Positions 9,846 to 27,177 of a DNA stretch of 64,000 nt are shown piece after piece (within the stretch, counting starts at the first letter, position 1; each line of letters starts with the position of its first letter). The stretch comes from Pseudohongiella spirulinae (GTDB lineage: Bacteria > Pseudomonadota > Gammaproteobacteria > Pseudomonadales > Pseudohongiellaceae). The translations under genes were made by a program, and so were the position numbers. Where the stretch lies: contig NZ_CP013189.1 in assembly GCF_001444425.1 (NCBI RefSeq), positions 682,001-746,000 of the forward strand. Direction: 5' to 3'. A model generated the notes under the pieces. The model did not search any database and had not been told where the DNA came from. It saw nothing but the letters and a program-made list of their open reading frames with translations.

Positions 9846-11159
9846 TTACTCGTTGTTATCGGGTGTAACGTGTAGCGTCAGTCCGTCAACCCGGCTGACG
9901 CGGAGCCGGTCGCCTTTTTTGACCTGTGCTGGTGTTGTAGCACGCCAGATCTCGCCGTGCATGTGCACATGTCCTTCGCCGGTAAAATCCTCTCTGGCAA
10001 TGGCGAGTTGCCCCGGCATGGCTTCTACGCCAGTGGTGATGCGTGCCTGGCGGGCTTTCAGGGCGGCCCCCAGAACCAGCAGAACCAGTGCCGCTGTGCT
10101 GACGGCAATCGCGGCGATAAGTGCAAATGAAATCTGCCAGGCCGGTTCGTTGGTGTCCATTAACATGACTGACCCCAGTATGAACGCGACCAGACCGCCA
10201 AGCCCGAAAATGCCGAAACTGGGGGTTGTCACCTCGAATACCATAAGCCCCAGTCCTAATACAATAAGCGAAAGGCCGACGTAACTGATTGGCAGCATCT
10301 GCAATGCATAAGCGCCGACCAGCAGGCTGATCACGCCCACAATGCCGGGAATGCCCATTCCCGGGTTGTAAAACTCCAATATCAGGCCATAAACGCCGAC
10401 CATTAACAGTAGATAGGCAATGTTGGGGTTGGTGATGATGCTGAGGAAATCGTGTCGCCAGTCGCTTTCGATCATCGTCACTGAAGCGTTGGCGGTGTCC
10501 AGGGTGCGGCTACTGTTATCGTCCAGCACAACTGTGCGTCCGTGCAGGGCGGTCAGTAATTCGCTGATATTGCTGGCGACTATGTCTATTACGTTAGCAT
10601 CCAGGGCGTCGTTGGCGGACAGATTGGCGGCATTGATGACGGTGTCACGAGCCCAGTCCTGATTTCGCCCGCGCAATTCGGCAAGGCCCTGCAGATAAGC
10701 GACGGCGTCATTCAGTACTTTCTCATTGGTCTCGCCAGATCCTAAGGCTACAGGTGTTGAGGAGCCCACATTTGTGGCTGGTGCCATGGCGGCAATATGG
10801 CTGGCGGTCAGGATATAAGTGCCGGCGCTGGCGGCGCGCGCGCCAGACGGCGCCACCCAGACAACAACAGGTACCGGGGATGCCAGTATGGCGCTGACGA
10901 TGTCTCGCATGGCAGCGTCCAGGCCGCCGGGTGTATCCATGCGGATGATCAGCAATTGCATGTTTTCAGCGCGCTCCAGAGCGCGTATGATATGGTCCGC
11001 GCTGGCTGGACCTATAGGGCCTGTCAGATCGGTCAATGCGATCGATTCACTGTCCGAAGCAGGTGGCTGGGAGTATACTTGTGGTGCAAATGACAGGCAG
11101 CTCAAGGCAACAAGCAAAGTCAGGCAGACGAGTCGGACGGGCCTGTGCAGTCGGTTCAT
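9846..11159 (-). CDS. NfeD-family membrane-bound serine protease (ClpP class)
   Basis: 437 residues from the chosen start. A signal peptide (about 1-28) is followed by a ClpP-like protease domain with RMDTPGGLD and GARAASAGTYI, the serine being in SAGTY. Four or five transmembrane helices (about 225-350) come next, then a soluble NfeD OB-fold C-terminus with MPGQLAIAREDFTGEG. The frame is open up to 11414, but the ATG at 11159 has GGAGG five bases upstream on the minus strand, so longer starts are rejected. It would work with the downstream slipin at the inner membrane. Confidence 0.93.
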   Translation of the reverse strand: MNRLHRPVRLVCLTLLVALSCLSFAPQVYSQPPASDSESIALTDLTGPIGPASADHIIRALERAENMQLLIIRMDTPGGLDAAMRDIVSAILASPVPVVVWVAPSGARAASAGTYILTASHIAAMAPATNVGSSTPVALGSGETNEKVLNDAVAYLQGLAELRGRNQDWARDTVINAANLSANDALDANVIDIVASNISELLTALHGRTVVLDDNSSRTLDTANASVTMIESDWRHDFLSIITNPNIAYLLLMVGVYGLILEFYNPGMGIPGIVGVISLLVGAYALQMLPISYVGLSLIVLGLGLMVFEVTTPSFGIFGLGGLVAFILGSVMLMDTNEPAWQISFALIAAIAVSTAALVLLVLGAALKARQARITTGVEAMPGQLAIAREDFTGEGHVHMHGEIWRATTPAQVKKGDRLRVSRVDGLTLHVTPDNNE

Positions 11160-11470
11160 GGCAGCCTCCGTTGACATGGGATGGAACCATATTACATAGC
11201 TGGCGATAAGTTGTCGACTTGCCCGGAAATGCTTGATTGACAAGGCATGTAGCCAAATTACAAGGGTGTGAACCGACACACTTTGTTGCAAAAATACAGC
11301 ACACAGCATTGTACTGTTTCGAGAACTTGGTTTAGCATCGATTTCAATGCTCACAGCTGCAATCGATGCAGTTTGCAGAAATAAGACAGACAGAAAGTAT
11401 GGCGGCAGTTGCAATCGGGAATGGTCCCGGAAGTGAGGAAAGCCGCTTGAACCTGCGGGAGGAATTCCAC
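11160..11470 (+). other. divergent intergenic region between nfeD and the first copper monooxygenase-like gene
   Basis: 311 bases without a supportable gene, holding the 5' signals for both flanking genes. A weak sigma70-like pair facing the monooxygenase gene is TTGCAA (11286-11291) and TGTACT (11310-11315) with an 18-base spacer, each 4 of 6 matches. A strong Shine-Dalgarno stretch GGGAGGAATTCC lies just before the ATG at 11471. No known operator was recognised. Confidence 0.35.
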
Positions 11471-12427
11471 ATGAAAAAATTGAGTTTAGCAGCTCTGGTT
11501 GCGGCGGCGTCAGTCGTCAGCTTTCAGGCGAATGCACAAGGTGTTGACCCACTGACTCAGGTTGAGCCGGTTGATGCTGAGTGGTTCTACAATGGTACAG
11601 AGCCTGATTACGTTGTTGACGTACCCAGCTTCACAGTACCTGCTACTGGCGTAATCGACTACATCGACTCCGTAATTCCGCTGGAATTCGGCGAAGACAA
11701 GTGGGTTAAAGCCGTTCAGTTCATTCCGGGTGACAAGCGCGTTCTGCACCACCTGCTGTCCTACGTTGTTGCTGATACGCCAGACGCTGGTGAAGGCATG
11801 CTGGACGAAACTGTGAACGATCCGCGTCGTGAATTCCTGGAAGGTTATGCGCCGGGTAAAGAGTACGCCACAGAGTTCCCCGAAAACACTGGTATCTACG
11901 TACCGACCGGTTCAGCTCTGCGTATGAGCATTCACTACACTTCTTTCGGCCAGGAAACTACTGACAGCACCCGTGTTGGTCTGTGGTTCGCCGATGAGAA
12001 CAATGAGCCTCAGTACCAGTACCACACATACTCAGTCGCCACACCGATGAATCAGATCCAGATTCCGGCCGGCGCCATGGAGTATGAGTCAGCTGCAAGC
12101 CACGTCTTCAACGAAGACATCACTCTGTACGGTTTCCGTGCTCACATGCACTACCGTGGCAAGTCTATGGCTGCACGTGTGATCTATCCTGACAACACTC
12201 AGGAAGAAATCATCAACATTCCTGACTACAACTTTGCCTGGCAGCCCACCTACCGCATGGATGAGCCGATGCAGATTCCTGCTGGTTCACGTGTAGTGGT
12301 AGAAGGTCTGTTTGACAACTCTCAGTATAACCTGGGTAACCCGGATCCGACCGTGGATGCCATGGGTGGTCTGCAGAGCTGGGAAGAAATGTTTATCGGT
12401 TACTTCTCTTACACTGCTAACGATTAA
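11471..12427 (+). CDS. secreted PHM-like type II copper monooxygenase family protein, copy 1
   Basis: 318 residues with a signal peptide ending at ANA (20-22). All six copper ligands of peptidylglycine alpha-hydroxylating/dopamine beta-monooxygenase can be placed: HH 93-94 in VLHHLLSY, H155 in MSIHYTSFG, H225 and H227 in AHMHYRG, and M307 in EEMFIGYF. The spacings (61, 70, 80) are close to those of mammalian PHM (H108-H172-H242 and H244-M314: 64, 70, 70). There is no cysteine, whereas animal PHM is disulfide-rich. These enzymes hydroxylate C-H bonds using O2, two uncoupled coppers and an external reductant; substrate and activity here are unknown. The start is set by GGGAGGAATTCC before the ATG; longer upstream frames lack a signal peptide. 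Confidence 0.8.
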   Translation: MKKLSLAALVAAASVVSFQANAQGVDPLTQVEPVDAEWFYNGTEPDYVVDVPSFTVPATGVIDYIDSVIPLEFGEDKWVKAVQFIPGDKRVLHHLLSYVVADTPDAGEGMLDETVNDPRREFLEGYAPGKEYATEFPENTGIYVPTGSALRMSIHYTSFGQETTDSTRVGLWFADENNEPQYQYHTYSVATPMNQIQIPAGAMEYESAASHVFNEDITLYGFRAHMHYRGKSMAARVIYPDNTQEEIINIPDYNFAWQPTYRMDEPMQIPAGSRVVVEGLFDNSQYNLGNPDPTVDAMGGLQSWEEMFIGYFSYTAND

Positions 12428-12467
12428 TAGTGTGTTAGAAGCTCGATAAAGCAGCACAACAACACCA

Positions 12468-12499
12468 GGGGCTGCTTCTCCTGAGAAGCAGCCCCTTTT
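12468..12499 (+). terminator. intrinsic terminator after PHM-like copy 1
   Basis: A perfect 13-bp inverted repeat (12468-12480 with 12483-12495, GGGGCTGCTTCTC arm) is followed by TTTTG. It separates copy 1 from the redoxin-cytochrome gene. The arm is nearly identical to the terminator after copy 4. Confidence 0.88.
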
Positions 12500-12586
12500 G
12501 TTTGCCAGTCTTATCTGGTTTGCGGTAAATCAATCTGCCTTAAGTTTGCGCCAGATTAAGATTCAGGCGAGATGGCTATAGTAGTC

Positions 12587-12614
12587 TTGCTTGTCTGCAA
12601 TCGTGTAGTATTGT
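12587..12614 (+). promoter_or_regulatory. candidate sigma70 promoter for the redoxin-cytochrome c gene
   Basis: TTGCTT (12587-12592) and TATTGT (12609-12614) are separated by 16 bases, about 100 bases before the ATG at 12716 and after the preceding terminator. The matches are moderate (4 of 6 each), so this is a candidate only. The rest of 12500-12715 shows no gene. Confidence 0.3.
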
Positions 12615-12715
12615 GATCGTTCAAAAAACAAAACAATAATATGTCGCAGAGCGTTTCGTTTCAGACGTAAGTGTTCCGCAGAAATATCCAGAGAGAGAAT
12701 GAGGGTTTGTTCACC

Positions 12716-13579
12716 ATGAAAAAATCAAAATTGCTGGCGCTATTCACTGTAGCAGCCGCTATGAGTTTTAATGCCTTTGCAGGCGACCGTGTTGGCGACT
12801 TCACGTTGATCGACAACAACGGTAAAGCACACCAGCTCAGCAAATATGCTTTCAACAAGGCTGTCGTGATCGTTTCTCAACAGGCTGGCTGTACCAATAA
12901 CCGTGAAAACATTGCTCGCTACAAGCAACTGCGTACCAACTGGGATCACCGCGGCGTCAGCTTCCTGATGCTGAATTCTTCTCCGGACTACGGTCGTGAC
13001 GGCATCCGCGCTGAAGAAGCTGTCTGGAACTATGATTTCCCCATCATGGATGATGAAACTCAACTGGTTGCAGATGCACTGGGTGTTACCAAGGCTGGTC
13101 AGGTGATTGTTGTTGATCCTGTGCGTATGCAGGTGATCTATCGTGGACCGATGCCGGTTCAGCCAGCTCGTGCGCCGCTGGGTGAAGTACTGGAGGCAAT
13201 CGTTGCTGACGGTGCAGACAGCCGTTCAATGGATGTTGTCAACGTCGATTTCGAGGTGGCTGAAGGTTGTGAAATGACCTTCCCAGCCAAAGAGCGTTAC
13301 ATGGCAGAAGCGCCTGACTATGAAACAGAAATCGCTCCGATCCTGATCGAGCGCTGTGTTGGCTGTCACGTTGAAGGTGGTATCGGACCGTTTGCCATGA
13401 ACAGCCACATGATGATTCAGGGCTGGAGCCCGATGATCCGCGAGGTAATCATGACTGGCCGTATGCCTCCGATGCAGGTTGACCCCACAGTTCGTCACTG
13501 GACCAACTCAGGCAACATTCCTGTTGAAGAGCGTCAGAAGCTGATTCACTGGATTAACGCTGGTTCGCCGCGTAATTGA
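12716..13579 (+). CDS. secreted redoxin-cytochrome c protein
   Basis: 287 residues. The signal peptide ends at AFA (20-22). Residues 24-165 form a thioredoxin/peroxiredoxin-like domain with a single reactive-type cysteine, C59, in QAGCTNNRE; the resolving cysteine of a CxxC pair is absent. Residues 200-287 form a small c-type cytochrome module: heme site CVGCH (214-218), a likely axial methionine in GRMPPMQ (M250 or M253) and the ending LIHWINAGSP. As recalled, redoxin, this cytochrome module and a PHM-like domain occur fused in that order in other bacteria. Here the third domain is encoded separately by the four flanking genes, so a periplasmic electron-transfer partner role is inferred. The ATG at 12716 begins the signal peptide. 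Confidence 0.85.
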   Translation: MKKSKLLALFTVAAAMSFNAFAGDRVGDFTLIDNNGKAHQLSKYAFNKAVVIVSQQAGCTNNRENIARYKQLRTNWDHRGVSFLMLNSSPDYGRDGIRAEEAVWNYDFPIMDDETQLVADALGVTKAGQVIVVDPVRMQVIYRGPMPVQPARAPLGEVLEAIVADGADSRSMDVVNVDFEVAEGCEMTFPAKERYMAEAPDYETEIAPILIERCVGCHVEGGIGPFAMNSHMMIQGWSPMIREVIMTGRMPPMQVDPTVRHWTNSGNIPVEERQKLIHWINAGSPRN

Positions 13580-13633
13580 TTAACTTGCTGACGGTGCCTG
13601 ATTTCTCAGGTGCCGATCGGTAATCGCAAGAAT

Positions 13634-13664
13634 GCCGCCACTGTTCGCAGTTGGCGGCTTTTTT
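13634..13664 (+). terminator. intrinsic terminator after the redoxin-cytochrome c gene
   Basis: The stem GCCGCCACTG pairs with CAG(T)TGGCGGC around a TTCG tetraloop, followed by six T residues (13659-13664). It is a strong, well-formed terminator 55 bases past the stop. Confidence 0.9.
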
Positions 13665-13729
13665 GTTGAAAGATATTTGCTTGTCTTATCCCCGATGCTG
13701 GTTTACGATTCTTGCACTGCAAGGCAGTT

Positions 13730-13744
13730 TGTGTGCAGCACACA
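13730..13744. promoter_or_regulatory. 15-bp perfect palindrome upstream of PHM-like copy 2
   Basis: TGTGTGC-A-GCACACA is a perfect 7-1-7 palindrome ending 26 bases before the ATG of copy 2. A smaller inverted repeat, ACTGC-AAG-GCAGT, lies just before it. It may be an operator or a 5' UTR hairpin. No known regulator motif was recognised, and the other copies do not carry the same sequence. Confidence 0.35.
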
Positions 13745-13770
13745 CATTCCCGCTCGAGGAGAAAACTATA

Positions 13771-14727
13771 ATGAAAAGAACAAGTTTGACTGCTGCACTT
13801 GCGCTGGCGTTTGCCTGGGGAGCCCAGGCACAGACAGGTGTTGACCCACTTACCCAGATCCAGCCCCCTACCAGCGAGTGGACCTATGATGGATCTGCTC
13901 CTGATCATATTGTTGAAGTGCCCAGTTTTACTGTGCCTGCCACCGGTGTTATTGACTACATCAATTCTGTGATCCCACTGGAATTTGAAGATGAAAAATG
14001 GGTCAAGGCGGTGCAATTCATACCGGGTGACAAGCGGGTCCTGCATCATCTGCTGTCATATGTGGTGGCCGATGATGGACAGAATGAAGGCATGATAGAT
14101 GAGGCCTCCAATGACCCGCGCCGCGAATTCCTGGAAGGGTATGCGCCCGGTAAGGAATATGCGACAGAGTTTCCTCAGGGTACTGGCATCAAGGTGCCGA
14201 CCGGCTCTGCGTTGCGTATGAGCATCCACTACACCTCTTTTGGTCAGGAAACCATGGACAACACCCGTGTTGGCCTGTGGTTCTATGACGAAGGCGCTGA
14301 GCCTGATCTGGAGTATCACACGTATTCAGTCTCTGCCAACGGACGTGACACACTGCATATTCCGCCGGGTGCCATGGAGCATGAAATGGCCGCGAGCCAT
14401 GTTTTTGACAAAGATATCGTGCTGCACGGCTTCCGTGCTCATATGCACTATCGTGGCAAGTCCATGGCCGCCCGCGTGATCTATCCCGATAATACCTCCG
14501 AGCCGATTATCAACGTGGCCGACTATAACTTTGCCTGGCAGCCGACTTATCGTATGTCGGAACCCATGGTATTGCCGGCCGGATCTCGGGTCGTAGTTGA
14601 AGGACTGTTTGATAACTCGCAGTATAATCCCGGCAATCCGGATCCGACCGTGCCGGCGGTTGGTGGGCCACAAAGCTGGGAGGAGATGTTTATCGGATAT
14701 TTCTCCTATACAGACCTCCCACAGTAA
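13771..14727 (+). CDS. secreted PHM-like type II copper monooxygenase family protein, copy 2
   Basis: 318 residues, the same length as copies 1, 3 and 4. The signal peptide ends at AQA before QTGVDPLTQ. All six predicted copper ligands are kept: VLHHLLSY, MSIHYTSFG, AHMHYRG and EEMFIGYF. By eye it resembles copy 4 most (shared AMEHEMAA, MIDEA, FYDEGAEPDLEYHTYS), with differences concentrated in the segment after YSV and at both termini. The ATG at 13771 follows GAGGAGAAAACTATA, a clear ribosome binding site; a longer frame from 13651 is rejected because it would bury the signal peptide. It is flanked by terminators on both sides, so it is probably monocistronic. Function as for copy 1; substrate unknown. 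Confidence 0.8.
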   Translation: MKRTSLTAALALAFAWGAQAQTGVDPLTQIQPPTSEWTYDGSAPDHIVEVPSFTVPATGVIDYINSVIPLEFEDEKWVKAVQFIPGDKRVLHHLLSYVVADDGQNEGMIDEASNDPRREFLEGYAPGKEYATEFPQGTGIKVPTGSALRMSIHYTSFGQETMDNTRVGLWFYDEGAEPDLEYHTYSVSANGRDTLHIPPGAMEHEMAASHVFDKDIVLHGFRAHMHYRGKSMAARVIYPDNTSEPIINVADYNFAWQPTYRMSEPMVLPAGSRVVVEGLFDNSQYNPGNPDPTVPAVGGPQSWEEMFIGYFSYTDLPQ

Positions 14728-14764
14728 GCATTGCCTTACAAATCGCTTCCAAAGACTAAACAAG

Positions 14765-14797
14765 AAGCCGTTACTATCGAGTGACGGCTTTTTGTTT
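14765..14797 (+). terminator. intrinsic terminator after PHM-like copy 2
   Basis: An 11-bp stem with one G-T pair (AAGCCGTTACT, 14765-14775, with 14780-14790) closes on ATCG and is followed by TTTGTTT. Confidence 0.85.
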
Positions 14798-14889
14798 GAG
14801 CTGTGTCAATGATTCCAGATCTGCCATGACCCACAATGTAACCCTGAAACATCACTATCAGGTTGATTACCTTCGGGGAGGCAGGTCGT

Positions 14890-15846
14890 ATGAAAAAATT
14901 GGCAATTGGTACCTCGCTGGCTGTTGCTGCTGCATTTGCCATGCACGCACAGGCGGGAGTTGATCCTTTGACGCAAATACAGCCGCCGCAAAGCGAGTGG
15001 GTGTATGACGGCAGTAATCCGGACTATGTTGTTGAAGTGCCATCATTCACGGTACCTGCTACAGGCATCATCGATTACATAGACTCGGTTGTGCCACTGG
15101 AGTTTGGTGAGGAGCGCTGGGTCAAGGCCGTGCAATTTATTCCCGGTGATAAGCGTGTTCTGCACCACCTGCTGTCTTATGTTGTGGCTGACACGCCAGA
15201 CGCCGGTGAGGGCATGCTGGACGAAACGGTCAACGATCCGCGCCGTGAATTCCTGGAGGGTTATGCGCCGGGCAAGGAGTACGCCACCGAGTTCCCGGCT
15301 GGAACCGGTATCAAGGTGCCTGAAGGTTCTGCGCTGCGCATGAGTATTCACTACACTTCCTTCGGGCAGGAAGCTGTGGACAGTACCCGTGTCGGGCTTT
15401 GGTTCTATGACAAGGACAAAGAGCCTGACCTGCAATACCATACCTATTCTGTGTCTACGCCGATGAATCAGATCGCGATTCCGCCGGGCGCCATGGAGTA
15501 TGAGTCAGCAGCTACTCACGTGTTCGATAAAGATATCGTGTTGCATGGCTTCCGCTCACATATGCATTATCGCGGCAAGCAGATGTCGGCGCGTGTTGTT
15601 TATCCGGACAATACGGTAGAGGACATTATCAATATCCCTGACTATAACTTTGCCTGGCAGCCGACTTACCGTATGTCAGAACCGATGATTCTGCCGGCAG
15701 GTTCGCGGGTAATTGTGGAAGGGCTGTTTGATAACTCTGAGTACAATACGGGCAATCCGGATCCGACTGTCACGTCGATAGGTGGTCTCCAGAGTTGGGA
15801 AGAAATGTTTATCGGTTACTTCTCTTATACTGATTTACCTCAGTAA
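14890..15846 (+). CDS. secreted PHM-like type II copper monooxygenase family protein, copy 3
   Basis: 318 residues. The signal peptide ends at AQA before GVDPLTQ. The copper-ligand motifs VLHHLLSY, MSIHYTSFG, SHMHYRG and EEMFIGYF are intact; the residue before HMH is serine instead of alanine. It pairs with copy 1 in several blocks (TPDAGEGMLDETVNDP, TPMNQI, AMEYESAA) but with copies 2 and 4 in others (HVFDKDIVLHGF, FSYTDLP), which makes it a mosaic. The ATG at 14890 follows GGGGAGGCAGG, a strong ribosome binding site. It has its own downstream hairpin. The role is inferred to match copy 1: a periplasmic copper- and O2-dependent hydroxylase of unknown substrate. Confidence 0.8.
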   Translation: MKKLAIGTSLAVAAAFAMHAQAGVDPLTQIQPPQSEWVYDGSNPDYVVEVPSFTVPATGIIDYIDSVVPLEFGEERWVKAVQFIPGDKRVLHHLLSYVVADTPDAGEGMLDETVNDPRREFLEGYAPGKEYATEFPAGTGIKVPEGSALRMSIHYTSFGQEAVDSTRVGLWFYDKDKEPDLQYHTYSVSTPMNQIAIPPGAMEYESAATHVFDKDIVLHGFRSHMHYRGKQMSARVVYPDNTVEDIINIPDYNFAWQPTYRMSEPMILPAGSRVIVEGLFDNSEYNTGNPDPTVTSIGGLQSWEEMFIGYFSYTDLPQ

Positions 15847-15866
15847 ATCAATGTTATAACTGTAAG

Positions 15867-15900
15867 CAGGCCGCTCTGTAAACCAGGGCGGCCTGTTTGT
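15867..15900 (+). terminator. intrinsic terminator after PHM-like copy 3
   Basis: A 12-bp stem (15867-15878 with 15884-15895, one G-T pair) closes on a five-base loop and is followed by TTTGT. The T-run is short, so the terminator may be leaky. Confidence 0.75.
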
Positions 15901-15904
15901 GTGC

Positions 15905-15919
15905 GTAACATAATGTTAC
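15905..15919. promoter_or_regulatory. 15-bp perfect palindrome, candidate operator upstream of PHM-like copy 4
   Basis: GTAACAT-A-ATGTTAC is a perfect 7-1-7 palindrome lying just past the copy 3 terminator. It is 20 bases upstream of a weak promoter-like pair, TTGAGC (15939-15944) and TACGCT (15962-15967) with a 17-base spacer. This position would suit an activator or repressor. A degenerate relative (ATGTAACCCTGAAACAT) is seen upstream of copy 3. The regulator is unknown. Confidence 0.4.
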
Positions 15920-15960
15920 AAAAGTCGGCTTGCCGGGCTTGAGCTTATTTGGTGCCTGAT

Positions 15961-15999
15961 CTACGCTCAGCAGTGTTTTATTAACTCAGATGAGCGTAG
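15961..15999 (+). promoter_or_regulatory. 5' UTR stem-loop abutting the ribosome binding site of PHM-like copy 4
   Basis: A perfect 9-bp inverted repeat, CTACGCTCA (15961-15969) and TGAGCGTAG (15991-15999), encloses a 21-base A/T-rich loop. The Shine-Dalgarno AGAGGAG starts at its last bases and the ATG is at 16013. It could stabilise the mRNA 5' end or gate translation. It may alternatively be partly upstream of the transcription start, because it overlaps the weak -10 candidate. Confidence 0.4.
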
Positions 16000-16012
16000 A
16001 GGAGCAGTAATA

Positions 16013-16969
16013 ATGAAAAAAACCACCTTAACTGCTGCAATGCTGTTAACTGCAGGCTGGATGGTTGGTGCGCAGGCCGGGGTAGATCCCCTGACTCAGA
16101 TAGAAGCCCCCTCCAGTGAGTGGATCTATAACGGAACCGAGCCGGATTATATCGTAGATGTACCCTCATTCACTGTACCGGCAACAGGCGTGATCGATTA
16201 TATCGACTCTGTGATTCCGCTGGAATTCGGAGAAGAGAAGTGGGTCAAGGCTGTTCAGTTTATTCCCGGTGACAAGCGGGTGCTTCACCACTTGCTCTCT
16301 TACGTCGTAGCCGACACGGAAAAAAGTGAAGGCATGATCGATGAGGCGGTCAATGATCCGCGTCGTGAATTCCTGGAAGGTTATGCCCCGGGTAAAGAGT
16401 ATGCAACCGAGTTCCCCGCCGGAACGGGCATCAAGGTGCCGGAAGGCTCTGCACTGCGCATGAGCATTCACTACACCTCGTTCGGTCAAGAGTCCGTGGA
16501 CAATACCCGGGTTGGTCTGTGGTTCTATGACGAAGGTCAGGAGCCGGATCTGGAGTACCACACATACTCTGTGTCTCCGGGCAACCGCACCGAGAACATC
16601 ATCATTCCGCCGGGTGCCATGGAGCACGAAATGGCCGCCACACATGTCTTCGATAAAGACATCGTACTGCACGGTTTCCGTGCTCACATGCACTACCGTG
16701 GCAAGTCCATGGCGGCGCGTGTGATCTACCCGGATAACACCCAGGAAAAGATTATCAATATCCCTGATTACAACTTCGCATGGCAGCCGACTTACCGTAT
16801 GGATGAGCCAATGGTGATTCCGGCCGGTTCGCGCGTGGTTGTTGAGGGTCTGTTTGATAACTCCGAGTACAACCCCGGCAACCCCGATCCGACCGTGCCA
16901 GCGCTGGGTGGACTGCAGAGTTGGGAGGAAATGTTTATCGGTTACTTCTCATACACCGATCTGCCATAA
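16013..16969 (+). CDS. secreted PHM-like type II copper monooxygenase family protein, copy 4
   Basis: 318 residues. The signal peptide ends at AQA before GVDPLTQ. All six predicted copper ligands are present (VLHHLLSY, MSIHYTSFG, AHMHYRG, EEMFIGYF). Over the mature part it is about four-fifths identical to copy 1 by eye, with long identical blocks such as VPATGVIDYIDSVIPLEF and FIPGDKRVLHHLLSYVVAD. The ATG at 16013 is preceded by AGAGGAGCAGTAATA. Its 5' region carries the palindrome and stem-loop listed separately, and a terminator follows. Its position before the Old Yellow Enzyme and BCCT genes might indicate a shared pathway, but the terminator argues against simple co-transcription. Confidence 0.8.
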   Translation: MKKTTLTAAMLLTAGWMVGAQAGVDPLTQIEAPSSEWIYNGTEPDYIVDVPSFTVPATGVIDYIDSVIPLEFGEEKWVKAVQFIPGDKRVLHHLLSYVVADTEKSEGMIDEAVNDPRREFLEGYAPGKEYATEFPAGTGIKVPEGSALRMSIHYTSFGQESVDNTRVGLWFYDEGQEPDLEYHTYSVSPGNRTENIIIPPGAMEHEMAATHVFDKDIVLHGFRAHMHYRGKSMAARVIYPDNTQEKIINIPDYNFAWQPTYRMDEPMVIPAGSRVVVEGLFDNSEYNPGNPDPTVPALGGLQSWEEMFIGYFSYTDLP

Positions 16970-16995
16970 TACCTGACTGCATAAGCAGTACACGC

Positions 16996-17032
16996 AAAAA
17001 GGGCTGCTTCCCGCAAGAAGCGGCCCTTTTTT
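16996..17032. terminator. intrinsic, probably bidirectional terminator after PHM-like copy 4
   Basis: AAAAAGGGCTGCTTC pairs with GAAGCGGCCCTTTTT (10-bp GC-rich core with one G-T pair, six-base loop), flanked by A- and T-runs. The core GGGCTGCTTC matches the arm of the copy 1 terminator. Confidence 0.88.
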
Positions 17033-17068
17033 ATTGTCCGATGAACGGCAACAGGATGAGACAGAGAT

Positions 17069-18178
17069 ATGACGCAGAACGCTTCACTGGCAGCTTTGCT
17101 GTCGCCATTTGAATCCCCCAAACTGCAGCTTAAAAATCGAGTGCTGATGGCGCCCATGACGCGCCAGTTTTCGCCTGACGGGGTGCCCGGTCAGAATGTG
17201 GTTGATTACTATCGCCGACGCGCCGAGGGGGATGTAGGGCTGATTATCACTGAAGGTACGACGGTCAATCACAAGGCCGCGTCATTTGACAGCAAGATTC
17301 CCAACTTCTATGCCGAAGAAGCGCTGGAAGGCTGGAGTAAAGTAGTCGAGGCCGTGCACAAGGCAGGTGGAAAAATTGCACCGCAGCTGTGGCATGTTGG
17401 CTGTGCTCGTAAACCGGGTACGGGGCCTTTTCCGGATTACCCCAGTGCAATGCCTTCCGGTCTGGCTCTACCGGGCAAAAAAGTGGGTGAGCCGCTGACA
17501 ACACAGGAGATTAATGACATTGTCCGCGCCTTCGGCGAAGCAGGTGGCAATGCCAAAAAACTGGGATTCGATGCGCTGGAAGTACACGGAGCACATGGCT
17601 ATCTGGTGGATGACTTTTTGTGGGAAGGACTGAATCAGCGAGAGGACAAATACGGTGGTTCACGTGCACGTCGCAGTCAGTTTGCGGTTGAGATTGTGCA
17701 GGCTATCCGCAGCGAAGTCGGTGAAGATTTTCCCATTATTTTCCGCTTCTCGCAGTGGAAACAGCAGGATTATAGTGCACGCCTTGCGACATCGCCGGAC
17801 GAACTGGCAGAGGTGCTCACACCCATTTCTGAAGCGGGCGTCGACATTTTCCACTGCAGTACTCGTCGATTCTGGGAGCCGGAGTTTGAAGGATCGGAGC
17901 TGAATCTGGCGGGCTGGACGCGTAAACTGCTGAATAAGCCAACTATCACTGTTGGCAGTGTCAGTCTGAACGAGGAGTTCATCACAACTTTCCAGGGCGG
18001 GCAGGCTGATGCGGCAGACATTAACGAACTTCTGCAGCGTCTGGCTGCTAATGAGTTTGACCTGGTTGCGGTGGGGCGCGCCCTGATTGCCAACCCGGAC
18101 TGGGTTAAACTTGTGACGTCTGATCATGCAGATCAATTAAAGACTTACGACCGGTCAATTTTGGCCGAACTGGTTTAA
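17069..18178 (+). CDS. Old Yellow Enzyme family FMN-dependent ene-reductase
   Basis: 369 residues of the NADH:flavin oxidoreductase TIM barrel. Visible motifs are VLMAPMTRQF near the N-terminus (flavin contact), DVGLIITEGTTV, the substrate-binding pair in EVHGAHGYLVDDFL, the NQREDKYGGS signature and the FMN-phosphate region VGRALIANPDWV. It would reduce activated C=C bonds or nitro compounds with NAD(P)H in the cytoplasm. The ATG at 17069 lies 37 bases after the preceding terminator. A BCCT carrier follows after 21 bases, so the two likely form an operon; uptake of a substrate that is then reduced or demethylated is possible. Trimethylamine- or dimethylglycine-type dehydrogenases are larger, so this is not one of them. 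Confidence 0.9.
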   Translation: MTQNASLAALLSPFESPKLQLKNRVLMAPMTRQFSPDGVPGQNVVDYYRRRAEGDVGLIITEGTTVNHKAASFDSKIPNFYAEEALEGWSKVVEAVHKAGGKIAPQLWHVGCARKPGTGPFPDYPSAMPSGLALPGKKVGEPLTTQEINDIVRAFGEAGGNAKKLGFDALEVHGAHGYLVDDFLWEGLNQREDKYGGSRARRSQFAVEIVQAIRSEVGEDFPIIFRFSQWKQQDYSARLATSPDELAEVLTPISEAGVDIFHCSTRRFWEPEFEGSELNLAGWTRKLLNKPTITVGSVSLNEEFITTFQGGQADAADINELLQRLAANEFDLVAVGRALIANPDWVKLVTSDHADQLKTYDRSILAELV

Positions 18179-18199: not shown

Positions 18200-19729
18200 A
18201 TGTTTGAACGACTGGGAAACAGGCTGGGAATCAGCGCCATTCCGCAAATATTTATCTCGGCGGCAATTATTGCGATTCTCTTTGTTGCGTTCGCCATCCC
18301 TTTCAATAGTCAGTTCGCTGCGTTTTTTGAAGCGATCGGGGACTTCACCTTTCAGTACTTCGGCTGGTTTTATGTGGCGAGTGTTTCCGGTTTGCTGCTG
18401 TTCCTGATCTGGGTGGCATTCAGCCGCTATGGGGCAATCCGCCTGGGTCAGGATGATGAAACGGCGCAATACAGTGCAGAAACCTGGTTTGCCATGCTGT
18501 TTGCGGCGGGTATCGGCACCATTCTGATGTTCTGGGGAGTTGCTGAGCCCCTGTCGCACTTCGCCAATCCGCCGTTGGCGGAAATCGAACCGCAAACGGT
18601 GGAAGCGGCCAAGCATGCGATGAATATCGCACTTTATCATTTTGGTCTGCATACCTGGACCATCTTCACCATGCCCGCCCTGGCGATCGCTTATTTTGCC
18701 TATCGTAAAAACTTGCCGATGCGTATCAGCAGTGTTTTTTACCCGGTACTTGGTGACAGAATCTTTGGGCCGCTGGGCTGGACGATCGATATTATTGCGT
18801 TGCTGGGCACTCTGTTTGGTGTTGCAGTGTCGGTAGGTCTGGGAACACTGCAATTGAACAGTGGTCTGAATGCGGTTTTTGATGTGCCGGTCGGTCAGAC
18901 CTCACAACTTGTTCTGGTGGCCGTGATCACACTGATTGCGACAATATCGGTGGCGCTTGGGCTGGACCGTGGCATCAAGCGCCTGTCGGAATTCAATATT
19001 ATTCTCGCTTTACTGGTCATGCTGTTTGTCTGGATAGCCGGACCAACGTTGTTCATTACCTCGGGCATTGTGCAGAACTTCGGCAACTACATGCAAAATC
19101 TGCCCTGGATGTCATTCTGGACCGAGGCCTATCAAGCGACCAGTTGGCAGCAGAGCTGGACCGTATTTTATTGGGCGTGGACTATCTCGTGGGCGCCGTA
19201 CGTGGGGATTTTTATTGCCCGGATTTCCAGAGGCAGAACGATCAAGGAATTTGTGCTTGGTGCGCTACTGGCGCCTCTGGCCTTTACCATTTTATGGTTC
19301 TCGGTATTCGGCCTGGCAGCGATTGACCAGGAGCTGAATCAGGGCATGGATCTGGTGACTCAGGTGCAGGCGGATGTGTCAGTCGCTTTGTTCGATTTTC
19401 TGGCGACCTTTCCGGTTCCGACTTTGATGTCTGCTGTCAGCCTGGTGGTCATCATCGTTTTTCTGACCACCTCTGCAGATTCTGCTGCCCTGGTTGTGGA
19501 TCAATTGTCCAGAAACGACCTGCAGCCTAGCCGAACCCGCCAGCGGGTTTTCTGGACCATTCTGCTTGGCTGCATAGCAGGCTCTCTGCTGCTGGGTGGT
19601 GGTCTGGATGCCCTGCAGAATGTCATTACCGCACTGGGTTTTCCTTTCTGTGTGCTGCTGGTGTTTATGGCCTACTCTTTACACCGTTCCCTGCACAATG
19701 ATTATCTGGCGCAGATTAACCAGGTCTGA
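18200..19729 (+). CDS. BCCT-family secondary transporter
   Basis: 509 residues with about twelve hydrophobic segments. The family signature region reads FYWAWTISWAPYVGIFIARISRGRT (residues about 325-350, the variable W-W position being T). It also has AGIGTILMFWGVAEP and LTTSADSAALVVDQL. BCCT carriers import quaternary ammonium compounds (betaine, choline, carnitine, DMSP), driven by Na+ or H+. The long cytoplasmic C-terminus of osmosensing BetP-type members is absent, so catabolic uptake is as likely as osmoprotection. The ATG at 18200 follows GGAGGGAAGGG. The stop overlaps the end of convergent rlmKL by 28 bases. Confidence 0.93.
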   Translation: MFERLGNRLGISAIPQIFISAAIIAILFVAFAIPFNSQFAAFFEAIGDFTFQYFGWFYVASVSGLLLFLIWVAFSRYGAIRLGQDDETAQYSAETWFAMLFAAGIGTILMFWGVAEPLSHFANPPLAEIEPQTVEAAKHAMNIALYHFGLHTWTIFTMPALAIAYFAYRKNLPMRISSVFYPVLGDRIFGPLGWTIDIIALLGTLFGVAVSVGLGTLQLNSGLNAVFDVPVGQTSQLVLVAVITLIATISVALGLDRGIKRLSEFNIILALLVMLFVWIAGPTLFITSGIVQNFGNYMQNLPWMSFWTEAYQATSWQQSWTVFYWAWTISWAPYVGIFIARISRGRTIKEFVLGALLAPLAFTILWFSVFGLAAIDQELNQGMDLVTQVQADVSVALFDFLATFPVPTLMSAVSLVVIIVFLTTSADSAALVVDQLSRNDLQPSRTRQRVFWTILLGCIAGSLLLGGGLDALQNVITALGFPFCVLLVFMAYSLHRSLHNDYLAQINQV

Positions 19730-24859: not shown

Positions 24860-25155
24860 GAAGGTTTTTCCTGAAAGTGTAGAGGTCTGTTAAGTTAGCA
24901 AATCGACCTGCTGAAATCCATGCGAGGCTGATGCCCTCTGCGCTTGTGGACTTGTTGGCAACTCTGCGGTATTCTCAGAAGTCCTTTCCTGTCAGTGATA
25001 ACTGCAAGAGTGATACGTCGCTCTTTAAGCCTTAAGAAGGGGGGCTTGATGGCTGTCAATCTGACCCTGCACGGGAAGGCTCCGGTGACCAACGGTGACA
25101 ACAAGAAAACCACAAAAGCCAGAATCCTGTTTTCGGCTTGATGAGGAGAGTGCAA
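24860..25155 (+). other. intergenic leader region before the PQQ dehydrogenase
   Basis: 296 bases between divergent genes. It contains the short frame listed separately at 25049-25141 and must hold the promoter of the dehydrogenase. No convincing -35/-10 pair, operator or riboswitch was recognised. Confidence 0.35.
25049..25141 (+). CDS. possible 30-residue leader peptide upstream of the PQQ dehydrogenase
   Basis: An ATG at 25049 sits 6 bases after the purine-rich AAGAAGGGGGG and opens a 30-codon frame beginning MAVNLTLHGKAP and ending at TGA 25139-25141, where the TGA overlaps the ATG at 25141 in the dehydrogenase frame. The ribosome binding site is the best in this region. The product has no cleavable signal and is not PqqA (no conserved E-x3-Y). 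It may be a translated leader or chance. Confidence 0.25.
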   Translation: MAVNLTLHGKAPVTNGDNKKTTKARILFSA

Positions 25156-27177
25156 GTGAAGATAAACAATACACGAATGGCAGGTGGACTGCTGTCGGTT
25201 GCCGTGAGTGCGGCCATGGCAGTTCCGGCGCTGGTATCGGCTCAGGAGTCCATTGAATGGCTGACTCTGGGTTCAGACTACGCGCACACACGTTTTATCC
25301 CCGCCAGCCAGATCAATGCTGACAATTTCGAATCCCTTCAGACGGCATGGGTCTGGGACGGCGCCAGCTTCCAGGCCAGCAGTGGCCGCTCAACCCCCAG
25401 CTATATTGACGGCATCCTGTACACAGTCGCTGGTGATCGTCGCCACGTTGTGGCCATCGATCCGGAAACCGGCGAGACCATCTGGTCATACCGCGAGCCC
25501 CACACTTTCCGTCACGAATACTCCATGCGTAAAGACTACGGCAAAGGCGTTGCCTATGGCGAGGTCAATGGTCGTGGCGTGATCTACAACATCAGCCCAG
25601 GTTTCTTCCTTACAGCGCTGGACGCCAAAACTGGCGCGCCGCTGGAAGGCTTTGGTCATGAAATTGGTGTTGAGGGCTTCCCGGAAACAGGCGTTGTCGA
25701 CCTGCAGAAAGTCATTGCCGACTACATGGGTTACGAATTTGATCCGTATTACGGTATTCCGCTGGAAGAGGGCTATATTACCTCGTCGTCGCCCGCCATC
25801 GTTGTAAACGATACCGTGGTAGTGGGTAATTCTGCGGAGCAGGGCTATAACCAGACTCGCATTGAGAACATTCCAGGCGATATTCTCGGTTTTGATATAG
25901 CAACCGGTGAGTTCAAGTGGAAATTCAATATCATCCCGGATAAGGGCGAGTTTGGTTGGGATACCTGGCAGGATGGTGATGGTAATCAGATTGATGATCC
26001 ACGAGCCTATACTGGCGAAAACTCTTCCTGGGCGCCCATGGCGGCTGACCCTGACCTGAATATGGTCTATGTTAATACCAACAGTGCGTCCATCGACTTT
26101 TATCGTGGGCACACACAGGGTGATAACCTCTATGGCTCAAGCGTTATAGCGCTGGACGCCTCTACTGGTGAGCGTAAATGGCACTTCCAGTTGGTTCACA
26201 AGGATGTCTGGAACTATGATACGCCGACAGCGCCAGTGCTGCTGGATGTCCAGCAGAATGGTCGGACTGTGCCAATATTGGCCCAGGTCAGCAAACAGTC
26301 CTTCACCTACGTGTTCAACCGGGAAACCGGCGAGCCGATCTGGCCGATTGAAGAGCGTCCCGTTCCTCAGTCCAAGATCCCGGGTGAAGTACTCGCCGCT
26401 ACGCAGCCTTTCCCGACCAAACCGGCCCCCTATGACATGCAGGGTCTGACTCACGACGATCTGATCGACTTTACTCCGGAGTTGCGTCAGCAGGCCATCG
26501 AAGCGATCTCCAGCTTTGAGATTGGTCCTCTGTTCCATCCGCCTCTGCACCGAGACAACGATCTGGGTTACCAGGGTTCTCTTTGGTGTCCGGGTGATAT
26601 CGGTGGTGTAAACATCGATGGTCCGGCAGCGGCCGATCCGACGACAGGTACGCTGTTTGTCACATCGCGCAAGGGTTGTACCAACCGTATCATCGCCCCT
26701 GCTCAGGAGCGGGATGCCATGCTGGAGCTGCCTACGGGCACAACCTTTGCCCGTTACGCACCGCTGCGTGCAGCGTTGGTGCGTGGTCCGCAGGGCCTGC
26801 CCCTGTTCAAGCCGCCCTTTAGCCGTATCACTGCAATCGATCTGAACACCGGTGATCACAAATGGTGGATCCCTGTCGGTGAAACGCCTGATCGTGTGAA
26901 GAATCACCCGGCTCTGGCTGGCGTTGATGTGGGCAACACCGGTTCCGGTACCGTGGCTCCGATGACTGTTACGTCAACCATGTTGATGTATGCCAGCACC
27001 TTTGGTGACGGCACACCTGCGCTTTACGCGGTAGATAAAGAGACCGGTGAAGAGATCGGTCGTGTTGAAGTACCTGGCGTCAGCCGTTACGGCATGATGA
27101 ACTTCCAGCATGAAGGCAAGCAGTACGTTGTGCTGCAGACAGGCAGCACCCTGACTGCATTGGCTCTGCCGGATTGA
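25156..27177 (+). CDS. secreted PQQ-dependent dehydrogenase (quinoprotein beta-propeller)
   Basis: About 673 residues. The signal peptide ends at VSA before QESIEWL. Repeated blade signatures are visible: AIDPETGETIWSYR, ALDASTGERKWHFQ, FNRETGEPIWPI, AIDLNTGDHKWWI and AVDKETGEEIGRV, consistent with an eight-bladed PQQ propeller of the glucose/alcohol dehydrogenase superfamily. The long insert and WCPGDIGGVNIDGPAA resemble soluble versions of membrane quinoprotein glucose dehydrogenase without the membrane anchor. No heme motif is present, so a separate cytochrome would take the electrons. Starts at TTG 25138, ATG 25141 and GTG 25156 share the frame; GTG 25156 has AGGAG seven bases upstream and gives a normal signal peptide. 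No pqq synthesis genes are nearby. Confidence 0.87.
   Translation: MKINNTRMAGGLLSVAVSAAMAVPALVSAQESIEWLTLGSDYAHTRFIPASQINADNFESLQTAWVWDGASFQASSGRSTPSYIDGILYTVAGDRRHVVAIDPETGETIWSYREPHTFRHEYSMRKDYGKGVAYGEVNGRGVIYNISPGFFLTALDAKTGAPLEGFGHEIGVEGFPETGVVDLQKVIADYMGYEFDPYYGIPLEEGYITSSSPAIVVNDTVVVGNSAEQGYNQTRIENIPGDILGFDIATGEFKWKFNIIPDKGEFGWDTWQDGDGNQIDDPRAYTGENSSWAPMAADPDLNMVYVNTNSASIDFYRGHTQGDNLYGSSVIALDASTGERKWHFQLVHKDVWNYDTPTAPVLLDVQQNGRTVPILAQVSKQSFTYVFNRETGEPIWPIEERPVPQSKIPGEVLAATQPFPTKPAPYDMQGLTHDDLIDFTPELRQQAIEAISSFEIGPLFHPPLHRDNDLGYQGSLWCPGDIGGVNIDGPAAADPTTGTLFVTSRKGCTNRIIAPAQERDAMLELPTGTTFARYAPLRAALVRGPQGLPLFKPPFSRITAIDLNTGDHKWWIPVGETPDRVKNHPALAGVDVGNTGSGTVAPMTVTSTMLMYASTFGDGTPALYAVDKETGEEIGRVEVPGVSRYGMMNFQHEGKQYVVLQTGSTLTALALPD

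What the first reader, a model, noticed from the sequence alone, without database searches (positions are those of the whole stretch)
11471..16969. Four near-identical PHM-like copper monooxygenase genes around a split redoxin-cytochrome c partner
Seen: four 957-base genes, each 318 codons with a signal peptide, and a redoxin-cytochrome c gene between copies 1 and 2. Established (from memory): in other bacteria redoxin, a small cytochrome c and a PHM-like (Cu2_monooxygenase) domain occur fused in this order, and the segment preceding the copper HH motif here (W-x-x-x-G-x-x-PD, VPA-x-G, EDKWVKA) matches that layout. Inference: here the oxygenase has been cut loose and amplified fourfold, with the redoxin-cytochrome as shared electron donor in place of ascorbate. 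A dedicated multi-copy periplasmic C-H hydroxylation system would be new.
Basis: partly seen in the sequence, partly recalled or inferred. Interest (0 to 1): 0.85.

Follow-up and report, generated by a model that had tools for sequence, protein, structure and literature searches.

The report
Split, multiplied copper oxygenases with heme partner
A marine bacterium carries four separate copies of a secreted protein related to the copper enzyme that finishes animal peptide hormones, next to a heme protein that is fused to the same enzyme in its relatives and probably feeds it electrons; what it acts on is unknown.

Summary
In detail: four 957-base genes and, between copies 1 and 2, a redoxin-cytochrome c gene; but the copies are 76-84% identical, not near-identical. 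All four pass Pfam's cut-off for Cu2_monoox_C. The predicted fold of copy 4 matches PHM/DBH (Z 21; next 9) and all six copper ligands are kept. Relatives' names point to Pseudohongiella. All 15 genomes held for this genus carry the split locus, usually with three PHM copies; four is seen only here. Relatives carry redoxin-cytochrome-PHM as one gene; trees suggest one fission, with the order reversed. Each gene ends in a terminator-like hairpin; copy 1 and the partner have codon bias close to EF-Tu. Most likely these are periplasmic dicopper hydroxylases reduced through the heme: the heme motif is constant, the redoxin Cys is not. The split copies keep an Arg/Tyr pair that in PHM (recalled) holds the substrate's carboxylate; this genome's ten fused paralogs lack it. 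Fused relatives sit beside NHL propellers that may resemble PHM's partner lyase (weak evidence). No activity, electron path or substrate is shown. New variant of a known kind.

The parts
11471..12427 (+). PHM-like copper protein, copy 1 (c1), with an apparent signal peptide
   Evidence: Pfam PF03712 31.2 bits, cut-off 23; ligands HH/H/HxH/M kept; c1-type gene first in the array in 14 of 14 related genus loci; codon bias 99.4th percentile of 169 ORFs
12467..12496 (+). terminator-like hairpin after c1
   Evidence: scan; fold -27.8 kcal/mol, z -5.8
12716..13579 (+). redoxin-cytochrome c partner gene (rc), 287 aa, apparent signal peptide; heme motif CVGCH and Met250
   Evidence: Pfam AhpC-TSA 35 bits; Cytochrome_CBB3 only E 0.037, below its cut-off; CxxCH and Met in 93 of 94 rows. 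A GTG start at 12671 is possible; the ATG is taken because relatives begin there
13625..13672 (+). terminator-like hairpin after rc
   Evidence: fold z -4.9
13771..14727 (+). PHM-like copper protein, copy 2 (c2)
   Evidence: PF03712 26.1 bits (run without the first Met); groups with one later gene of each of five genus loci
14760..14800 (+). terminator-like hairpin after c2
   Evidence: fold z -7.4
14890..15846 (+). PHM-like copper protein, copy 3 (c3); extra copy of this genome, sister to the c1-type clade
   Evidence: PF03712 29.6 bits (run without the first Met); tree; 86-88% identical to c1 in the windows at 240-420 nt of the aligned genes, 56-80% in the others
15862..15902 (+). terminator-like hairpin after c3
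   Evidence: fold z -6.1
16013..16969 (+). PHM-like copper protein, copy 4 (c4); predicted ligands H92 H93 H153 / H225 H227 M307; Arg223 and Tyr311
   Evidence: PF03712 27.9 bits; AlphaFold2 pLDDT 85 pTM 0.80; PHM Z 21.3; residues
16990..17036 (+). terminator-like hairpin after c4
   Evidence: fold z -5.4
17069..18178 (+). flanking Old-Yellow-Enzyme-family oxidoreductase, conserved neighbour, set off by the hairpin before it
   Evidence: Pfam Oxidored_FMN; next to the array in 12 of 14 related genus loci, the other two end before it
18200..19729 (+). flanking BCCT transporter, conserved neighbour
   Evidence: Pfam BCCT; found in 9 of 14 related genus loci as fetched, in one (L029) missing although the stretch goes on

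Best explanation
The four genes encode periplasmic dicopper monooxygenases of the PHM/DBH fold. In the ancestor each was the C-terminal domain of a redoxin-cytochrome c-PHM protein. In the Pseudohongiella lineage and two neighbouring genera the domains became separate genes with the order reversed, plausibly by tandem duplication with loss of opposite halves; in Pseudohongiella the oxygenase was then duplicated to three, here four, separately terminated genes served by one redoxin-cytochrome. Inferred working: the c-type heme (CxxCH, Met) passes electrons one at a time to the two coppers in place of ascorbate, O2 is activated at CuM, and a C-H bond is hydroxylated outside the cytoplasm. The kept Arg223/Tyr311 pair suggests a substrate with a carboxylate next to the attacked carbon, such as an N-acylglycine or glycine-ended peptide. 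Shown by computation: predicted fold, ligands, fused relatives, copy number, codon bias. Inferred: location, electron path, oxygenase activity, substrate, route of the fission.
For: Pfam C-domain over cut-off in 4 of 4 copies, hit in 53 of 55 rows. Foldseek ranks 1-31 are all PHM/DBH; VIA Z 17.9-21.3 for PHM/DBH, next 9.3. Six ligands in 108 of 109 rows. Heme CxxCH + Met in 93 of 94 rows, the other a 30-residue fragment. Of 73 fetched loci 19 are split and 54 have the PHM in a frame of 488 or more codons. In the family 22 genomes have stand-alone and 47 fused genes among 69 of 137 genomes at E<=1e-95. One stand-alone rc in 15 of 15 genus genomes. Split PHMs form one clade (99) beside fused type A; split rc form one clade (98). 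Terminator-like hairpins after 5 of 5 genes. Codon bias: c1 99.4, rc 98.2 percentile; c1 first and rc second of the genes compared in 5 of 5 other Pseudohongiella loci. Arg/Tyr pair together in 95 of 109 rows, never one alone.
Against: No assay, no substrate, no metal or heme shown. No hit to the N-terminal Pfam domain and no profile hit to any PDB chain sequence at E<=0.01. The heme-copper distance could not be measured: model coordinates were not to be had. The redoxin part has no recognised active site. The ten longer paralogs of this genome carry their own heme motifs, so the split rc need not be the only donor. The PHM tree is a quick one (SH-aLRT only, careful search unfinished, long branches, midpoint root); the rc tree leaves the split clade's nearest neighbour open.
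Confidence: 0.6

Rival explanations
1. A bacterial PAM-like two-step pathway: the R/Y-type PHM hydroxylates the alpha carbon of a carboxylate-ended acyl-glycine or peptide, and a secreted NHL propeller encoded elsewhere in the genome splits the product, as PAL does in animals.
For: Arg223/Tyr311 kept in 27 of 27 split rows and 68 of 71 fused relatives. In 34 type A fused loci (list picked by hand) an NHL protein is found in 29, HupE_UreJ_2 in 30, CstA in 32. A >=62% identical NHL ortholog is in 23 of 25 PHM-bearing family genomes and 0 of 10 PHM-less ones, best there 48%. The NHL protein of this genome matches PAL 3fvz at E 6.6e-7; H78 R79 H134 Y205 R267 H349 are the same in 54 of 54 NHL rows.
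Against: Plain NHL domains (thin, TRIM) score better than PAL in each of four searches, and a query from the N-terminal part of one NHL protein found no PAL at E<=1. The mapping to PAL's catalytic residues is recalled, not aligned by a tool. The neighbouring NHL protein L134:17154 lacks the third His in the alignment. No NHL gene in the fetched flanks of 19 split loci. The co-occurrence follows genera, so it may be shared descent.
Confidence: 0.2
2. A copper hydroxylase for a small organic nutrient or pollutant (not a glycine compound), the copies being dosage for a bulk substrate.
For: Very high codon bias of c1 and rc; this genome's longer paralogs vary at the presumed substrate positions; oxygenase-rich metabolism is reported for HTCC2089/Pseudohongiellaceae (PMC8371827, passages read).
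Against: The split copies keep the Arg/Tyr pair that the varied paralogs lack; of the genes next to the array only OYE and BCCT look metabolic, and their relevance is uncertain.
Confidence: 0.3
3. Not an oxygenase in vivo but a copper/heme redox or peroxide-handling system (copper buffering, O2 or H2O2 reduction).
For: Redoxin (AhpC-TSA) fold in the partner; high expected abundance; in loci L068 and L069 a catalase-peroxidase lies just downstream, in L069 with a LysR gene.
Against: Both mononuclear copper sites, including the Met ligand, are kept in 108 of 109 rows; no catalase-peroxidase is apparent among the ORFs of L070 and L072; the redoxin lacks the peroxiredoxin motif (motif recalled).
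Confidence: 0.15

Closest known systems
Peptidylglycine alpha-hydroxylating monooxygenase (PHM; rat, 1phm/1sdw)
   Same: Double jelly-roll fold (Z 21), H-H/H and HxH/M ligand order with similar spacings, Arg/Tyr pair (recalled R240/Y318); Gln258 may stand where PHM has Q272 (inferred from spacing).
   Different: About 18% identity; no Cys after residue 22 in the split copies, so no disulfides like those of PHM (recalled); bacterial protein with a heme c protein as fused or neighbouring partner; substrate unknown.
Dopamine beta-hydroxylase (4zel)
   Same: Same fold (Foldseek best E 8.4e-14) and, recalled, the same copper ligand order.
   Different: The 318-residue copies have no room for DBH's additional DOMON domain (recalled); Arg223 is PHM-like rather than DBH-like (recalled).
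Fused redoxin-cytochrome c-PHM proteins of Pseudohongiellaceae/OM182 (no description found)
   Same: Same three domains; type A is the nearest relative (about 53-63% identity in the PHM part).
   Different: One polypeptide in the order rc-PHM, often a tandem A/B pair beside NHL, HupE-like and CstA genes; here split, reversed, multiplied and elsewhere in the genome.
ResA/TlpA-like thioredoxin-fold proteins
   Same: Fold of the redoxin part of the fused relative (Z 16-19.5).
   Different: One conserved Cys in place of CxxC; followed by a c-type heme motif.

Membership tests
Copper type II monooxygenases (PHM/DBH) | Double jelly-roll fold of PHM | tested here: met
   AlphaFold2 model of c4; Foldseek; VIA Z 21.3, rmsd 3.3, 257 aligned, next unrelated Z 9.3. 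A prediction, not a structure
Copper type II monooxygenases (PHM/DBH) | CuH ligands His-His plus His | tested here: met
   H92, H93, H153 in c4; 108 of 109 rows; PHM ligands H107, H108, H172 per PMC6123673 (passages read)
Copper type II monooxygenases (PHM/DBH) | CuM ligands His-x-His plus Met | tested here: met
   H225, H227, M307 in 109 of 109 rows; that PHM uses H242, H244 and M314 is recalled
Copper type II monooxygenases (PHM/DBH) | Pfam C-terminal domain PF03712 | tested here: met
   4 of 4 copies over the cut-off; 53 of 55 rows at E<=0.01
Copper type II monooxygenases (PHM/DBH) | Pfam N-terminal domain | tested here: inconclusive
   not listed for any copy at E<=1 nor for any of 55 rows at E<=0.01, though the fold covers both halves
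Copper type II monooxygenases (PHM/DBH) | Intradomain disulfides of the animal enzymes (recalled) | tested here: not met
   no Cys after residue 22 in 27 of 27 split rows; 26 have no Cys at all. A trait of the animal members rather than of the fold
Copper type II monooxygenases (PHM/DBH) | O2-dependent hydroxylation with ascorbate or another one-electron donor | not testable with these tools
   needs protein
Peptidylglycine-type substrate binding | Arg/Tyr pair that holds the carboxylate (recalled R240/Y318) | tested here: met
   R223 and Y311 together in 27 of 27 split rows, 95 of 109 in all, never one alone. Their equivalence and role are recalled; no paper found. PHM's third anchor (recalled N316) is Ile309 here
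PAM two-enzyme system | PAL lyase partner | tested here: inconclusive
   NHL proteins beside fused relatives match PAL but plain NHL domains more strongly; a partial query missed PAL
Thiol-disulfide redoxin (ResA/TlpA) | CxxC active site | tested here: not met
   single Cys59 in 33 of 33 rows of A4, no second Cys at +3; Cys59 absent in nine of ten longer paralogs of this genome, one of these a gap
c-type cytochrome | CxxCH heme motif and distal Met | tested here: met
   C214 C217 H218 M250 in 93 of 94 rows. Pfam support is weak (E 0.037; Cytochrome_CBB3 in 14 of 44 fused proteins); heme itself and the Met's role not shown

The most novel reading that the evidence does not exclude
A bacterial counterpart of animal peptide amidation run without ascorbate: heme-reduced PHM-type oxygenases, here cut loose from their cytochrome and multiplied, work with secreted PAL-like NHL lyases to cleave glycine from acyl-glycines or peptides outside the cytoplasm, at bulk expression.
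Probability: 0.2. Interest if true: 0.88.

Novelty: new variant of a known kind. Interest (0 to 1): 0.62.

Why it matters
PHM and DBH are known as ascorbate-driven animal enzymes of hormones and transmitters; I recall no characterised bacterial member with a heme donor, and the searches of the open library listed in Tried and rejected showed none. A cytochrome-coupled form would answer how this chemistry runs without ascorbate. The family is rare elsewhere (5 of 321 class genomes including this one) yet reaches 8-22 matches per genome in the 25 PHM-bearing family genomes looked at, so it probably does something large in these bacteria. The split form offers two small proteins, which makes the donor-acceptor question directly testable.

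Tried and rejected
Recent amplification or assembly artefact: rejected, since 54-63% of comparable fourfold sites differ and 10 of the 14 other genus genomes have three intact copies. In the remaining four the third copy is cut by a contig end (G005, G006) or broken by stops (G004; G010).

A single operon: not favoured; a strong hairpin with a T-rich tail follows each of the five genes. The simple scan listed only the one after c1 at these places on the sense strand. The promoter scan found 7 sites where shuffles give 8.8, so no promoter is claimed.

Redoxin as thiol donor: lowered. Cys59 and Cys185 are both present in 77 of 94 rows, but of this genome's ten longer paralogs eight have A, S or D at 59, one has a gap and one has Cys, while all ten keep the heme motif.

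Simple fission by a stop codon: does not explain the order PHM then rc seen in the genus and in the g5 loci; tandem duplication with opposite losses is inferred, not shown. Descent of rc from the B gene of the A/B tandem was considered; split PHM groups with type A and split rc lies on the side of the tree that holds type A, not B.

Riboswitch or known RNA: none in 11000-17200 at gathering scores. Phage records: no match to c4. Profile search of A3 against PDB sequences: nothing at E<=0.01. Trying to bring PAL to the top of an alignment failed. The careful PHM tree did not finish and the rc tree in that script failed for time; for the later rc tree I dropped partial and near-duplicate rows, 70 of 94 kept. 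The 109 PHM rows hold one gene of this genome twice, once as a fragment.

Literature: ten searches of the open library, the cap. In nine none of the titles and abstract starts shown was about a redoxin-cytochrome-PHM protein; most of these lists were cut to the best 15-25 of many more papers. One search returned no paper. I read passages of PMC8371827, PMC8812541 and PMC6123673; other papers were seen as listings only. Subscription journals and preprints are not covered.
Full report
What is there. The window holds four ORFs of 957 bases on the + strand, c1 11471-12427, c2 13771-14727, c3 14890-15846, c4 16013-16969, and between c1 and c2 a 287-codon redoxin-cytochrome gene, rc, 12716-13579. 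Genes that look like NfeD, slipin and PPDK (named by eye) lie upstream on the other strand; an Old-Yellow-Enzyme-family gene and a BCCT transporter lie downstream. Pairwise identity among the copies is 76-84% in protein and 71-75% in DNA, and 54-63% of comparable fourfold sites differ, so 'near-identical' is too strong: these are old copies kept by selection.

Family. All four copies pass the Pfam cut-off for Cu2_monoox_C; the N-terminal Pfam domain is not listed. In the 55-row alignment A3, 53 rows match the C-terminal domain; a profile of A3 finds no PDB sequence at E<=0.01. The AlphaFold2 model of c4 (pLDDT 85.2, pTM 0.80) matches PHM and DBH in Foldseek ranks 1-31; VIA gives Z 17.9-21.3 for them and 9.3 for the next chain, a peptide:N-glycanase. 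The ligand set H92 H93 H153 / H225 H227 M307 is complete in 108 of 109 PHM rows; the exception is the longer gene in L137. Spacings between ligands are 1, 60, 72, 2, 80 against 1, 64, 70, 2, 70 in PHM (PHM's CuM numbers are recalled). Split PHMs have no Cys after residue 22 in 27 of 27 rows.

Partner. rc matches AhpC-TSA (35 bits) and only weakly a cytochrome family (E 0.037). In the model of the fused relative in L077 (pLDDT 86.7, pTM 0.84) the first part matches thioredoxin-fold proteins at Z 16-19.5 and the last part PHM/DBH at Z 18.6-21.3; the cytochrome part is barely tested by that list. CxxCH and a Met are kept in 93 of 94 rc rows, the remaining one a 30-residue fragment. Cys59 together with Cys185 is kept in 77 of 94; of this genome's ten longer paralogs eight have A, S or D at position 59, one a gap, one Cys. 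So heme is the constant redox element, and a thiol is not needed in general.

Distribution. This genome has 15 matches to c4: the four split copies and eleven more, two of which share one frame, so ten longer genes. These have heme motifs too; in one, L130, the redoxin part does not align well. Among 56 relatives 25 match, all in the same family, with 8-22 matches each; 10 further family genomes and 21 genomes of other families have none. In 137 family genomes 69 have a match at E<=1e-95: 22 have stand-alone genes (15 in this genus, 6 in g5, 1 in g7) and 47, all g4, have fused genes; at least two g5 genomes had none at that cut-off. All 15 genomes held for the genus have exactly one stand-alone rc at E<=1e-100, each beside PHM copies. 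In the class 5 of 321 genomes match, this one included. PF03712 itself is found in 2 of 299 phylum genomes, this one included. The named collection places the split loci in Pseudohongiella (P. nitratireducens SCS-49, Pseudohongiella sp. O18 and others) and LSUCC0112; that the window is itself Pseudohongiella is inferred. In the 14 related genus loci the order is PHM1-rc-PHM2, then PHM3 where the contig goes on, with the c2-like and c4-like genes in swapped order in four of them (L022, L026, L030, L032); in g5 loci it is PHM-rc. Ten of those 14 genomes have three intact copies; this genome has four.

History. In a quick tree of 109 PHM rows the 27 split rows form one clade (support 99) beside fused type A (91), inside fused rows only. 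c1 and the first genes of the genus loci form a clade (97) to which c3 is sister (98); c2 and c4 group with later genes of those loci, without a single clean clade for c4. The 12 split rc rows form one clade (98), nearest neighbour open. One fission, early in the Pseudohongiella-g5-g7 group, is the simplest reading. The root is a midpoint and the careful search did not finish. Windowed identity puts a short stretch of c3 nearer to c1 (86-88%) than the rest (56-80%), as gene conversion might.

Expression. Hairpins with z from -4.9 to -7.4 follow all five genes, so each is probably its own transcription unit. With a small reference set (EF-Tu, L1, L11), c1 ranks at the 99.4th percentile and rc at the 98.2nd of 169 ORFs of 150 codons or more from the window and ten stretches of this genome (two of them overlapping, the reference genes included); c4 94.7, c3 90.5, c2 87.0; one longer paralog (L133) reaches 98.8. 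In five other Pseudohongiella loci, scored with this genome's weights, c1 is first and rc second of the genes compared. This forecasts abundance but does not measure it.

Substrate hints. At c4 positions 223 and 311, Arg and Tyr occur together in 95 of 109 rows and never singly: 27 of 27 split, 68 of 71 fused relatives, 0 of 11 rows (10 genes) of this genome's longer paralogs. From memory these are PHM's R240 and Y318, which hold the substrate's carboxylate together with N316 (Ile309 here); the last paper search found no text for it. So the split copies are the only members in this genome that keep the pair. The pattern also follows the tree, so it is not independent evidence of binding. The fused type A/B pair of OM182-type genomes sits in a cluster with NHL propellers (29 of 34 loci), HupE_UreJ_2 (30 of 34) and CstA (32 of 34); none of these is found in the fetched flanks of 19 split loci. 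The type A list was picked by hand; CstA is named by eye. A close NHL ortholog occurs in 23 of 25 PHM-bearing family genomes and 0 of 10 without PHM, best there 48% identity, though whole genera carry this pattern. The NHL protein hits PAL at E 6.6e-7 but a plain NHL domain at 8.6e-19; three further searches rank the same way and a partial query missed PAL. Residues that I recall as PAL's catalytic set seem present. This is a lead, not a result.

Verdict. A PHM/DBH-fold protein family with intact copper ligands, coupled by fusion history to a c-type cytochrome, split and multiplied in one genus. The most likely job is heme-driven hydroxylation in the periplasm; the substrate is open. In this second version I lowered the PAM-like rival from 0.25 to 0.2, because the partial query that missed PAL is now counted against it.

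Noticed in passing
G000:C1:2675000-2702000 (L134, L135); many of L074-L127: Recurrent cluster of NHL propeller(s), HupE_UreJ_2, fused redoxin-cytochrome-PHM genes and CstA; DUF6644 membrane proteins beside it in this genome. Possibly a PHM plus PAL-like gene cluster in bacteria.
   Followed up: partly
window 25138-27177: PQQ-dependent dehydrogenase (PF01011) with high codon bias (0.683) about 8 kb downstream; a periplasmic alcohol oxidation partner is conceivable but no link was shown.
   Followed up: partly
L137:6476-8113: Longer PHM paralog of this genome that lacks two of three CuH ligands (H-S-R in place of H-H-H) while keeping CuM ligands and the heme motif.
   Followed up: no
L133:7782-9587: One longer paralog has codon bias as strong as rc (98.8th percentile), unlike the other nine.
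   Followed up: no
L068:9989-11656, L069:9484-11712: Catalase-peroxidase just downstream of the split PHM-rc pair in two g5-type loci (with a LysR regulator in L069); none apparent among the ORFs of L070 and L072.
   Followed up: partly
L023 (G004) and L029 (G010), third PHM copy: Third copy broken by stops or frame changes in two related genomes, in which only two intact copies remain.
   Followed up: partly
L067 (CALQJO020000021.1): Contig titled 'Rhodoferax sp. OV413' carries a typical Pseudohongiella locus; the record title is probably wrong.
   Followed up: no
window about 15127-15307 (c3) against about 11711-11890 (c1): c3 is clearly more like c1 over this short stretch than elsewhere, as gene conversion would leave.
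   Followed up: no
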